Translations under genes and position numbers: made by a program
Part shown: positions 11,538 to 18,216 of the stretch, in pieces
Numbering within the stretch: position 1 is the first letter of the stretch
Layout: each line of letters opens with the position of its first letter
Notes under the pieces: model-generated
Databases searched by the model: none
Told to the model about the DNA's origin: nothing
The model's input: the letters and a program-made list of their open reading frames with translations, nothing else
From: Monosiga brevicollis MX1
Taxonomy: Eukaryota > Opisthokonta > Choanoflagellata > Craspedida > Salpingoecidae
Reading direction: 5' to 3'
Assembly: GCF_000002865.3 (NCBI RefSeq)
Contig: NW_001865051.1
Location: 15,277-46,830, forward strand
Length of the DNA stretch: 31,554 nucleotides

Positions 11538-14388
11538 CTAGACCGTATAGTAGATGACCAGCTCTGGATAGATCTGAGCATTTTCAAAAATGATAACTTC
11601 ACGAAATGCTCGAGGTCCATTAACAATGACCGAGTCATACCTAACGAGATAGAAAGCATGATGAGGCAGAGAGGGTCGGCATCAAGCCGCAAATAACGTC
11701 TTTCCACCTGCCTTTCATTGTTGCAGTCGTTTGGCGCGAGAAGCGGCGGAGCTAGGCTTGTAGAGGAGAAGCTCTGGGTGACGTGGGCACGACCCAGCAG
11801 AGTTCGCGTGATGATCAACATGTGCACCTTTTTGTCTCCGGGGCTTGTGTAAAGGTGCGCCTGTCCGTCATTCCAGGATGAGTGCCGGGAGGAGGGCTGG
11901 CATCGATGCGTACAAGGGTATCAATATTCTTGCTTACTTTGACGGGATGATCGGCTTGATAAATGCCATAACCATATCGATGGCAAGAGCTCTCGCCGGC
12001 AAAGCGGCAGTCAAGGCCCAGGCGTACAATCTTGTCACGCCTTGGAAGGTCAAATTTAAAGCCGTGAAAAAGCAGGCGCTCTTGACAGGGTTTGTCGCGG
12101 AGCAGAATAGGCTGGCCTGACAGCGCTTCCATTGTGGCCGTTTTGAGTTGATCGTAGTGTTTTTGATGTGAGATGATGCTTCCCAACATCTCACGTCGCT
12201 TGGCATTGTAGCGCTCCCACAATACGGGGTTCTGGACGCGCTGGACGCTGATGCTTGCCAACCCATTTTCATCGTCGTTCAGTCGCGTTAGAAGTTCGGT
12301 CACCTAGCCGTACTACCATGCCAGGGATGCGAGTCCATCAATCAAGCCAATCGGCTGTATCGCGCAACGCTCAATTCGTCGTGTTCTGTGAGAATAAACA
12401 GTCGTACCTCAGGGATTAGCTCGGGTGCATCACGCAGAATTTCAATGGCTGACCAGGCCTTTCCGACTTGGATAGGCAACTTGACTTGCACGGTAGCGCT
12501 CAAAAGGCTTGGCCGTTGCTTTGGTTCAGACGAAAGCAGAGCACGCGTTTCCTTGTAGAGGTCATTCGTTTGCTTACACATCTACAAGCGAATATGAGAT
12601 ATCATGCAAACCTAATCATGATATGCTTTTCAGGGGCAGCTGATACCAACCTCAGCAGCAAGATGTGGAAAGTCGCATGCACGCCCTTGCTCCCGTGGGT
12701 TCCAGCTACACCTTTCCACCACCTGATCCGTTGCCAACTGAGCAGGAGGTACTGTCTGCGAAAACATGTAGGTGTTGTAGAGAACGCAGCCAAAGGAAAA
12801 GGCATCCTGTGCCGGACGTGCGCCCACACTAAGCGCTTGAGGTTGCTATCAATGTTGGTTAGCAGTTTTTGACGATCCCAGCTAGCGCCATGCAGTGTGG
12901 CAACCATGTCCAGGGCCGCTGCAAGGTCCGTCGGTGGCGCCTCAGGCACCGTGGCAGGCTGCGCAGACGGAGCGGGACATGTTGCCAGTACGGTTTGGAG
13001 CTCGAGAAGTGCCGGCTTCAGATCAAACTGGTTTGCACAACCATGTAGATCTTTGATTACCGATTCTAGATTGTCGACGGTCAAACCCAGCTGGCTCAAG
13101 CGGCTGTTCAACGCTTTGGGCGCTTGCAGTGCCTGATCGAGCGCGCAAGTGGCCTGGGTGATAATCTTCTTGAAGGTGGTCCAGTCCACATCTGTCAAGT
13201 CGAGTGGCGCTCCGTCGATGATGGTTTGAATGTTTGCAACCGCCGTTCTGAGCTGGGGATCATGTTTCATCGCACCAACGACAAAGGCATCAAGGTGTGG
13301 GAGAGGATGACTGGTCGTCGCTTGGGGTAGAAAAGGCTTGAGGCAAGTTTCTACTGCCACTAGAGCAGAGGCCACAGTCTATTCGAGACACGTGGTGTCG
13401 TTGATCGTGACTAGGTCCGACGAAGGGATGGATAACAGCGGAACCCACGCAAGAAAAGCAGGAGGTTGGGTTGGCTCACCTGCAAGGTGGGTACGGGGCT
13501 AGGCAAGGGCGGTAGCCACACGGGTGACGCTTCTGACCCTGGCTGAGGAACAGGATTGGGAGGCCCTGCAAAGCGGACCCCGTGGGCGGCGAATACGGAC
13601 TTCAAGCCGTCGACATACTTGCTTTCATGCGCCAAGTCAAGAGGCGTCTGGCCGCTCTATGGGCCCACAGCGGCAGTCCCATGCGGGACACGAGCAGCAA
13701 AGTGCAATTGAATCATGTTGCAGCTGGAGGAAGTGCTCGAATGCACCAAAGTTGAGGTGAGGAGTAGAAACGTAGGGACAGGTTGTGGTTCTCACGTGGT
13801 CTTTGATGTCAGTGTCAGCTTTGTGTAGCAACAGGATGTTAACCAGCTCCATGTGGCCGCTACGGCAAGCATTGTGAAGAGGGGTACTGCCTTCCTGTTG
13901 ATTGTTTGCCGGCCCCACCAGATGTTCATAAAGCAATATATTCAGAGCATCAAGATGAGCCATACAAAATCATACACGAAAACGTGTTTGTGACGACATC
14001 AAAGCGCTGAGAAAAAAGGTCACACTGACGTAGCCTTTGGCGTTGGGATCAGCGTCGTGCTTCAGTAAGATCTTCACTACCTCCATAAAACCCATGACAC
14101 AGGCCATGTGCAGGGGTGTGTTGCCATTCTGCTCGCATGTTGAAGAAAAAAAAGAATGAATGTGTCTGCGGCACCATCTGAGACCAACCTCCTTCATATC
14201 CAAACACGCCATTGGGGTGTCGTGCAAGGCAACAAAACAGCATTTTTTTTTTTTTTTTTCAATCGCAAACGTACATGTCTGGTGTAAGCAGCCGCGGATT
14301 GAATGTGATGCAAAGTTTCCAAAAGTTGAAGCGCTCTCTGTGCGCTTGCACCACACGCATAATACAGCTCCTCCCCTTCGGAACTCAT
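11538..14388 (-). CDS. Ankyrin - kinase-like - PARP fusion protein, about 649 aa
   Basis: Exons (minus): 14388-14275, 14128-14030, 13894-13796, 13656-13480, 13378-12905, 12845-12651, 12581-12408, 12303-11938, 11860-11712, 11640-11538. Exon 1 is the leader shared with ANK-1 and ANK-2. Exons 2-3 each encode one 33-residue ankyrin repeat; exon 4 holds a last partial repeat and a Pro-rich linker. Exon 5 is helical and unrecognised. Exons 6-7 look like the end of a kinase C-lobe (DAFSFGCVLYN, then EPKQRPSLLSA about 70 residues later), but no N-lobe, HRD or DFG is seen. Exons 8-10 form a PARP catalytic domain: VQNPVLWERY, LLFHG (His524), YGYGIYQA (Tyr559), YTSPGDKK, LLGRAHV, YDSVIVNGPR and FREVIIFENAQIYPEL with Glu630 at the catalytic position. 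An H-Y-E triad is typical of poly-ADP-ribosylating enzymes using NAD+. The exon 9-10 intron appears to be GC-AG (GCAGGT). The exon 5-6 junction (59-nt intron) is the weakest. Confidence 0.8.
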
Positions 14389-14706: not shown

Positions 14707-15538
14707 GTCAGTCAGTACCCCACCAGCAAAATAGCTTGGTGGAGTCAAAGGCCCAAGCCAGATCTTCGGCAGAAGCAGACTACGTGCACTGCCAGGCAAT
14801 TCAAACAACCCCCTTTCTACAAAAAAAAAAAATGGAAAATAAACCTGTTTGACATGGATCGAGCGAGCAACGCGACTGCACGACACAAGCAGGCTTAAAG
14901 TACCCTGGTGGCCACAATGAATCCCCAAAGTACAGCAATAAGTTTTCATCTGAAAAAGCGATGATCACGGTAGTGTTGAATGACACGACAACAACTGGAG
15001 CATTTGCTTCACAAGCTGTAGAAAGGTTGGGTTTTGGTTCGGACTGGGTCGTGCCTGCTTGTGATCGCACGCTTACAAGCAGGCACGATGCAAGCAGTCA
15101 TAATATGAAACAACAACAATGGAGCAGAGTCAAGATGAAAATAATGGAGAGCGTGCTTGGTGCTCAACGTGTCTTTGTGATACAAAGGAGTGAATTTTAT
15201 TGCTCAGTGTCAACCGGAACGCAGCAGCGCCATTGATGCTACGGCCTTGAGATCGCAGCACACCTGCTTCTGCTTCTGTCACTCAACCTCCAACAGCAGT
15301 TTACAACAACATCCCAGGCCCTGACAGAAGTGTCCCAAAAACGTCGAAAGTGCCTTGATCAATGTCATCATGATGACAAAAGGCTCCAGCGTAAGAAGGC
15401 TTGTGTGAGGCAGCTGGTTCTAGGTTGGCAGCGGCCTGGTGTGAGCAGGCGGGCTAGACTCGAACTGTGGGCGCATTTTTTCTTTAAATTGCTAGCTTGT
15501 GTGACTTGAGCATAGCTGAAGAGCATTTAAACGACAGG
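14707..15538. other. Uncertain region after the hypothetical exon
   Basis: May contain a second exon of the preceding gene (about 14900-15236, open on the plus strand) and the 5' flank of the dehydrogenase gene. No clear splice acceptor, RNA gene or repeat was identified. Confidence 0.35.
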
Positions 15539-16306
15539 ATGGCGTTGAAGTACGACTACAGTGGCCGCACGGCCTTTGTGACCGGCGCAGCATCAGGCAT
15601 GGGCTTGGCTGCCGCCGAGGGCTTTGCCCAGGCAGGTGCCAACGTGGTGTTGGTCGATCGCAACGAGGAGGCGTTGAGGAACGAGGCGAAAAAGCTGACG
15701 GATGCTGGCCACCGTGCCTTGGCCGTGGTCTGCGACGTTTCAAAGGAGGCGGACGTGGAACAGGCCGTGCAGCGCGCGGTGTCAGAGTTTGGCAGCCTGG
15801 ACGTGGCCTTCAACAACGCAGGCATCCAAGCTGATGCCCTGGAGCTGGCCGAGGTCAAGCTCGAGGACTTTGACCGCATGCTCTCGGTAAACCTGCGGGG
15901 CGTTTTTACATGCATGAAGTACGAGCTGGCCCAGATGCGCAAGCAGGGCTCTGGTTCCATCGTCAACAACTCGTCTCTGGGTGGCTTTGTGGGCGTTCCA
16001 GGCCGCGCCGCCTACCATGCAGCCAAGCACGGCATCCATGGACTGACCAAGACAGCCGGGCTTGAGTATGCTGCGCAGGGTATCCGCGTGAACGCTGTGG
16101 CTCCCGGCATCATTGACACGCCCATGGTGGCAGGCATGAAGCAGGCCGAGAAGGGCGTCATCGAAGACATGATGCGGGATGTGCCCATCAAGCGCTTGGG
16201 TACTGCCCAGGAGGTGGCCGCGGCCGTCCTGTGGCTTGGCAGTGATGCGGCCAGCTTTGTCGTTGGCCACGTGATCGCTGTGGACGGTGGCTACGTGGCA
16301 CGATAA
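15539..16306 (+). CDS. Short-chain dehydrogenase/reductase (classical SDR), 255 aa
   Basis: Intronless, ATG at 15539, TAA at 16304-16306, usual length for a classical SDR. The N-terminal Rossmann fold has TGAASGMG (residues 15-22); Asp40 at the end of the second strand suggests NAD(H) rather than NADP(H). NNAG is at 92-95, the structural Asn at 118, the catalytic Ser at 145/146, and YxxxK with Tyr159 and Lys163. APGIIDTPM and the terminal VDGGY are family features. It would oxidise or reduce an alcohol/ketone substrate that cannot be named from sequence; no targeting signal is evident, so it is probably cytosolic. Single-exon structure and strongly bacterial-style motifs, among neighbours with 2-24 exons, suggest acquisition from bacteria. 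An in-frame upstream extension lacks an ATG. Confidence 0.92.
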   Translation: MALKYDYSGRTAFVTGAASGMGLAAAEGFAQAGANVVLVDRNEEALRNEAKKLTDAGHRALAVVCDVSKEADVEQAVQRAVSEFGSLDVAFNNAGIQADALELAEVKLEDFDRMLSVNLRGVFTCMKYELAQMRKQGSGSIVNNSSLGGFVGVPGRAAYHAAKHGIHGLTKTAGLEYAAQGIRVNAVAPGIIDTPMVAGMKQAEKGVIEDMMRDVPIKRLGTAQEVAAAVLWLGSDAASFVVGHVIAVDGGYVAR

Positions 16307-18053: not shown

Positions 18054-18216
18054 NNNNNNNNNNNNNNNNNNNNNNNNNNNNNNNNNNNNNNNNNNNNNNN
18101 NNNNNNNNNNNNNNNNNNNNNNNNNNNNNNNNNNNNNNNNNNNNNNNNNNNNNNNNNNNNNNNNNNNNNNNNNNNNNNNNNNNNNNNNNNNNNNNNNNNN
18201 NNNNNNNNNNNNNNNN
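18054..18216. other. Assembly gap (163 N)
   Basis: A run of unresolved bases directly after the CT microsatellite, presumably a collapse or sequencing stop at the repeat. Confidence 0.99.

What the first reader, a model, noticed from the sequence alone, without database searches (positions are those of the whole stretch)
11538..14388. Ankyrin - kinase-like C-lobe - PARP architecture with intact H-Y-E triad
Tankyrases combine ankyrin repeats, SAM and PARP. This protein keeps ankyrin repeats and a triad-bearing PARP domain but replaces SAM with a helical region and what looks like only the last part of a kinase fold (SFGCVLYN ... PKQRPSL), without N-lobe or catalytic loop. A decayed or scaffold-only kinase lobe fused to an ADP-ribosyltransferase is unusual and could link phospho- and ADP-ribose signalling.
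Basis: partly seen in the sequence, partly recalled or inferred. Interest (0 to 1): 0.75.

Follow-up and report, generated by a model that had tools for sequence, protein, structure and literature searches.

The report
Broken copy of ankyrin-kinase-PARP gene
The gene is a damaged copy, with most of its kinase domain cut out, of a large and apparently undescribed choanoflagellate gene family whose intact members join ankyrin repeats, a protein kinase and an ADP-ribosyltransferase in one protein.

Summary
The observed parts are real, but their arrangement looks like damage. On the minus strand (14388-11538) lie ankyrin exons, part of a helical exon, a kinase C-lobe fragment and a PARP domain with H-Y-E. 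The genome is Monosiga brevicollis. I count 45 places with the C-lobe, the window included, and examined DNA of 37 plus one divergent copy. The 36 besides the window keep the kinase Lys, HRD Asp and DFD Asp, followed by PARP with the same intron positions. The window copy lost about 1.3 kb, including kinase subdomains I-VIII, out of frame. Of 13 frame-restoring GT-AG introns, one (143 nt) has a weak but family-range donor, so rescue by splicing is unlikely, not excluded. Its last intron starts GC, not GT. PARP exons still show purifying selection. The PARP resembles PARP12/15 more than tankyrase. The family is the real find: kinase and ADP-ribosyltransferase in one chain, found only in M. brevicollis within the limits of three protein searches; no paper that I found describes it, but two key papers are not held. 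Its proteins are deposited as uncharacterized.

The parts
14275..14388 (-). exon 1, N-terminal cap MSSEGEELYYAC..., resembling the cap MSDDGKQLYWAC of paralogue P0006
   Evidence: donor GTACGT
14030..14128 (-). exon 2, ankyrin repeat 1
   Evidence: Pfam Ank; coordinates
13796..13894 (-). exon 3, ankyrin repeat 2
13480..13656 (-). exon 4, partial third ankyrin repeat and proline-rich linker
12830..13378 (-). first part of the helical region, homologous to residues 1-182 of the reference kinase exon
   Evidence: tblastn 54% to the reference; no Pfam family over its cut-off
12827..12830 (-). deletion junction: the reference has 1308 nt (436 codons: rest of the helical region and kinase subdomains I-VIII) here, the window has 2 nt; frame lost
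12651..12827 (-). kinase C-lobe remnant from helix F (VGARPAQDAFSFGCVLYN...)
   Evidence: 72.6% to the reference paralogue; DDR2 C-lobe
12408..12581 (-). end of kinase C-lobe (PKQRPSL) and linker
11938..12303 (-). PARP exon 1, triad H (12075-12061, LLFHG) and Y (11976-11950)
11714..11860 (-). PARP exon 2 (about two further bases belong to a split codon); following intron starts GC instead of GT
11541..11639 (-). PARP exon 3, triad E (11606-11586, FREVIIF); stop codon 11540-11538

Best explanation
The locus is a copy, broken by an internal deletion, of a family with 45 counted places in the choanoflagellate Monosiga brevicollis, whose intact members encode ankyrin repeats - helical region - protein kinase - PARP-type ADP-ribosyltransferase. 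Shown: gene order, shared exon-intron structure, the 1.3-kb loss of most of the helical region and of the kinase N-lobe, catalytic loop and activation segment, and the lost frame in the DNA. Inferred: the deletion is recent and the copy now makes no ankyrin-PARP protein (read straight, it gives a 421-residue ankyrin-helical protein with an out-of-frame tail of about 75 residues). Inferred for intact members: ankyrin repeats choose partners, the kinase and the adjacent PARP modify the same targets or regulate each other, and the number of copies reflects gene birth and death.
Against: The one passable candidate intron (12949-12807, 143 nt, donor score 3.5; 2 of 141 family donors score lower) lies within the family's size range, and three of the window gene's own ankyrin-exon donors score worse by the same matrix (-0.6, -4.5, -3.8), so splicing could still join the parts. 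No stop in the window copy's 319 C-lobe/linker/PARP codons or 187 aligned helical codons. dN/dS of its C-lobe, linker and PARP exons (mean 0.178, median 0.185, 36 pairs) is close to that of the other copies (mean 0.187, median 0.179, 630 pairs; mean 0.168 for the 356 with dS 0.8-2). So it has not drifted long, or part of it is still used. GC-AG introns can be functional (recalled). No transcript data.
Confidence: 0.68

Rival explanations
1. A kinase-less ankyrin-PARP protein is made: a new splice (best candidate 12949-12807, 143 nt) removes the junction and restores the frame, and the GC-AG intron is used.
For: Open PARP and C-lobe exons under purifying selection; 13 frame-restoring GT-AG pairs exist, 3 of them 98, 140 and 143 nt long; the 143-nt one has a donor within the family's range.
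Against: That donor is near the bottom of the family's range and the other 12 are below it; the same stretch is coding exon in the paralogues; a second odd splice site (GC) is needed.
Confidence: 0.18
2. Only the front part is still used: a truncated ankyrin-helical protein, acting as a partner or competitor of intact paralogues, with the PARP part orphaned.
For: Front exons have GT donors and no stop; straight reading is open for 421 codons.
Against: The last 75 or so residues are out of frame; the stop lies upstream of further introns, so decay of the messenger would be expected (general knowledge). The helical part shows somewhat raised dN/dS (0.33 against 0.25, 22 of 36 window pairs usable).
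Confidence: 0.1
3. Assembly error: two paralogues were joined or repeats collapsed, and the real locus is intact.
For: Dozens of similar copies; many lie near contig ends.
Against: The helical part and the C-lobe/PARP part are both among the most divergent of the 37 examined, so neither was borrowed from one of these copies.
Confidence: 0.1
4. Two separate genes: an ankyrin-helical gene and a downstream PARP gene with its own start.
For: The frame break separates them.
Against: Annotated paralogue proteins span ankyrin, kinase and PARP (5 of 6 scanned).
Confidence: 0.04

Closest known systems
Uncharacterized Monosiga brevicollis MX1 proteins such as MONBRDRAFT_33093, _34771, _30380, _39188
   Same: same kinase C-lobe and PARP parts; hits to the window protein have 54-62% identity over the aligned part
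   Different: they have the whole kinase domain; the window copy lost it
PARP12 and PARP15 (mono-ADP-ribosyltransferases)
   Same: nearest PARP sequences in the PDB (PARP15 1.9e-11 for a paralogue, PARP12 1.1e-9 for the window copy), including the VQN..LW..Y segment
   Different: the family has Glu at the third triad place, where these have Ile or Leu (recalled; consistent with the alignments); no ankyrin or kinase there (recalled)
Tankyrase
   Same: ankyrin repeats before a PARP domain with H-Y-E
   Different: no SAM found; kinase between in the paralogues; PARP less similar (best tankyrase-2 6.4e-6 for a paralogue, 2.7e-4 for the window)
Ankyrin-containing Clade 1 PARPs (for example of Dictyostelium)
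   Same: ankyrin plus PARP
   Different: described with WGR and PRD domains between (PMC2964712, passages); no such Pfam match here

Membership tests
M. brevicollis ankyrin-kinase-PARP family | helical, C-lobe and PARP exons in order with conserved intron positions | tested here: met
M. brevicollis ankyrin-kinase-PARP family | complete kinase domain | tested here: not met
   window copy lacks reference residues 183-618; so it is a descendant, not a complete member
Tankyrase | ankyrin repeats | tested here: met
Tankyrase | SAM domain | tested here: not met
   no SAM in Pfam: window at E up to 1, six paralogues at E up to 0.001
Tankyrase | PARP domain closest to tankyrase | tested here: not met
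   by phmmer against PDB sequences PARP12 and PARP15 score better; no tree was made
PARP (ARTD) | PARP catalytic domain with H-Y-E | tested here: met
   (sequence; the PARP part of the fold model was poor)
PARP (ARTD) | ADP-ribosyltransferase activity | not testable with these tools
   needs an assay
Protein kinase (window copy) | VAIK lysine, HRD, DFG, APE | tested here: not met
   all inside the deleted stretch
Protein kinase (paralogues) | kinase fold and Lys, HRD Asp, DFG Asp | tested here: met
Protein kinase (paralogues) | glycine-rich loop and Gly of DFG | tested here: not met
   loop reads like HYNQNHKVYKA; DFG reads DFD in 35 of 36 and DCD in one; activity is open

The most novel reading that the evidence does not exclude
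M. brevicollis has evolved a fast-changing family of dozens of two-writer enzymes, an active kinase and an active PARP12/15-like ADP-ribosyltransferase in one chain behind variable ankyrin arrays, working as a pathogen- or prey-sensing system; members can shed one writer at a time (the window copy lost the kinase and may still make an ankyrin-PARP protein, the C50 copy lost the PARP His and Tyr).
Probability: 0.25. Interest if true: 0.8.

Novelty: new variant of a known kind. Interest (0 to 1): 0.45.

Why it matters
A kinase and an ADP-ribosyltransferase in one polypeptide, kept under selection in dozens of copies in a close relative of animals, would be a direct physical link between two signalling modifications and an experimentally accessible case. 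It also adds a PARP of the PARP10-15 kind, with a Glu triad, outside animals. The window copy itself matters less; it warns that domain architectures read from a genome can be deletion products.

Tried and rejected
Tankyrase without SAM: rejected. Scaffold-only kinase lobe as a designed module: rejected, since the 36 other copies examined keep the kinase residues. Rescue splicing: my first scoring used 38 donors, trained and scored on the same set, and put all 13 candidates below the family (best -0.3, family minimum 6.3). The check with 141 donors scored leave-one-out widened the family range to -1.7 to 14.5 and put one candidate, 12949-12807, inside it at 3.5; I therefore raised the odds of the splicing rival and lowered those of the pseudogene reading. 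Candidates were sought only with donors in the helical exon, acceptors from about 12,833 to 12,760 and lengths up to about 520 nt. A 23-nt intron at the junction scores -9.0 and is shorter than any of 142 family gaps. Pseudogene of long standing: disfavoured; three stops would be expected after about 0.08 neutral changes per site and none is seen in 319 codons. Telomere link: one exact fourfold TTAGGG match in the assembly, on C29 (the tool warns that simple repeats may be skipped), so contig ends are not shown to be telomeres; family repeats can themselves break assemblies, so the excess near contig ends (17 of 41 within 50 kb, about 5.9 expected; 4 of 45 places dropped for lack of contig length) stays unexplained. 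First AlphaFold job (15 paralogues, P0005) was poor, mean pLDDT 41.6; the second (64 sequences, P0006) folded ankyrin and most of the kinase well and PARP badly, so the PARP fold rests on sequence. VIA-align listed only kinases for that model; other parts were barely tested.

Full report
What is there. On the minus strand between 14388 and 11538 the exons give an N-terminal cap, ankyrin repeats (two full, one partial), part of a helical region, a kinase C-lobe fragment and a PARP domain. Pfam scores Ank at E 5.4e-20 and PARP at 33.2 bits (cut-off 26.7) and lists no SAM. The C-lobe fragment alone is invisible to Pfam but matches the C-lobe of the DDR2 kinase at E 2.9e-5. The triad His, Tyr and Glu are in place by sequence; the Glu lies eight residues before the conserved Gln of the C-terminal motif.

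Where it is. The assembly has 39.47 Mb in 57 contigs. Proteins of the family returned by the protein search are named Monosiga brevicollis MX1, and some lie on contigs of the same length as contigs here (929,013 and 1,258,938 bases).

The family. The C-lobe peptide finds 89 matches in the genome, which I count as 45 places for its first half, the window included; the PARP peptide finds 59 matches. DNA was examined for 37 places, the window included, and for one divergent place on C50; the other 7 of the 45 were not examined. The 37 share a 3' half of five exons with the same intron positions; gaps between exons are 63-150 nt in 142 measured. In paralogues the C-lobe is the end of a full kinase domain. 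Across the 36 copies other than the window (misaligned window row set aside): catalytic Lys 36, helix-C Glu 35 (Asp in one), HRD Asp 36, first Asp of DFD 36. The glycine loop is replaced by HYNQNHKVYKA-like sequence, and DFG reads DFD in 35 and DCD in one. PARP His 37 of 37, Tyr 37 of 37, Glu 36 of 37. By the criteria, 31 of 37 pass; the six that do not are the window copy, C47, C17 (203255), C14, C7 (85592, run of N) and C7 (92232). C32 (325054) passes but has a break in the helical part. dN/dS medians among the other copies, for pairs with dS 0.3-2, are 0.10 for the kinase N-lobe and catalytic loop, 0.18 for the C-lobe, 0.16 for PARP and 0.25 for the helical region. Six annotated proteins scanned all carry Pkinase and PARP over the cut-offs, and five of the six also ankyrin repeats.

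The window copy. Against the reference paralogue (C28, 107646-114586) it lacks residues 183-618 of the kinase exon: 1308 nt replaced by 2 nt, taking the rest of the helical region and kinase subdomains I to VIII. The two sides are in different frames. Read straight, the front gives 421 residues, the last 75 or so out of frame. Within the limits told under Tried and rejected, 13 GT-AG pairs would restore the frame without a stop. Scored against 141 donors of the other copies, leave-one-out range -1.7 to 14.5, median 11.2, 12 of the 13 fall below the range (-3.9 and lower) and one, 12949-12807, scores 3.5, with 2 of 141 family donors below it. The window gene's own donors score 9.5, 9.1 and 2.5 for the first three introns of the 3' half and -0.6, -4.5, -3.8 and 5.2 for the ankyrin exons, which the matrix was not trained on. 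So rescue by splicing is unlikely but not excluded. The last intron starts GC where the other 36 copies have GT. The copy has the longest end branch of the family tree, 0.58 against a median of 0.11; its place in the tree is weakly supported.

Against long decay. Its C-lobe, linker and PARP exons have no stop in 319 codons and a dN/dS close to that of the others (mean 0.178, median 0.185 over 36 pairs; others mean 0.187, median 0.179 over 630, or mean 0.168 for 356 pairs with dS 0.8-2). By part, window pairs against others: C-lobe 0.152 against 0.18 (34 pairs), PARP 0.204 against 0.162 (25 pairs), helical 0.33 against 0.25 (22 pairs). So the break is recent, or some part is still used. Birth and death seem to go on in the family: one search lists six PARP remnants with in-frame stops (C14:166928, C9:76299, C9:44735, C7:96513, C9:104120, C9:165121), though stops in such matches can also be intronic.

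Relation to known proteins. By sequence against the PDB, the nearest PARP domains are PARP15 (1.9e-11) and PARP12 (3.7e-10) for a paralogue and PARP12 (1.1e-9) for the window copy; tankyrase-2 is weaker (6.4e-6 and 2.7e-4). All 21 hits for the window protein and 19 of 20 for the PARP region of P0005 (the other is an ostrich PARP10 at 1e-7) are M. brevicollis. In one search the first 21 of the 120 rows shown are M. brevicollis and no later shown row carries both kinase and PARP; 787 of the 907 hits were not shown. Searches scored only the candidates sharing most words, and each search takes only proteins of 0.55-1.75 times the query's length. So the fusion is not seen elsewhere, within those limits. 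No hit of the lengths searched corresponds to the window gene itself.

Literature. PMC4245714 (passages read) notes the ankyrin-PARP combination in M. brevicollis; its two uses of 'kinase' do not concern a fusion. PMC2964712 (passages) and PMC9688111 (passages) treat tankyrases; the latter detected none in M. brevicollis. [quoted passage not shown] brevicollis and S. rosetta. Ten searches (listed under Tried and rejected) gave no paper that I saw to describe a kinase-PARP fusion; most papers were seen only as listings. The M. brevicollis genome and tyrosine-kinase papers are not held.

Mechanism, inferred. Ankyrin repeats bind partners; kinase and PARP, joined by a short linker, act on the same targets or on each other. 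The resemblance to PARP12/15, which belong to a group with antiviral members in vertebrates (recalled), the copy number and the turnover suggest a defence or recognition role. None of this is tested. The C50 copy keeps kinase motifs but has Met and Trp where the PARP His and Tyr should be (read by eye), so the two activities may be separable.

Verdict. The window gene is most likely a casualty of gene turnover, with a minor chance of a spliced, kinase-less product. The family is worth study.

Noticed in passing
L070 (C50:1176900-1181000), minus strand: Most divergent family member examined (37% identity in the C-lobe, 36% in PARP): kinase motifs kept (AVK, HRD, DFD), but the PARP His reads Met and the Tyr reads Trp (by eye).
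   Followed up: partly
window 10331 to about 4900 and 1185 to 1, minus strand: Further ankyrin repeats behind the same kind of N-terminal cap ([25 protein letters not shown]); searches list no other family match on C44.
   Followed up: partly
family copies, 41 of 45 places with known contig length: 17 of 41 lie within 50 kb of a contig end, about 5.9 expected; copies cluster, and repeats may have broken the assembly.
   Followed up: partly
C48:575581-579475 and C48:650792-654686: Two nearly identical family copies 75 kb apart on one contig (end branches 0 and 0.0068), perhaps a recent segmental duplication.
   Followed up: no
kinase domain of the paralogues: DFG reads DFD (35 of 36) and the glycine loop lacks its glycines, although Lys and both Asp are kept in 36 of 36: an unusual kinase whose activity is open.
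   Followed up: partly
window 15488-16306, plus strand: Single open frame for a short-chain dehydrogenase-like protein in a genome whose other genes here have introns; could be a transfer from bacteria. Named by eye, not tested.
   Followed up: no
window 18054-18216: Run of N next to simple-sequence repeats: an assembly gap or a masked stretch.
   Followed up: no
P0033 (metagenome protein, 525 aa): PARP-only protein with 33% identity to part of the family query; the only shown non-Monosiga row with a PARP domain, a possible protist relative of the PARP domain.
   Followed up: no
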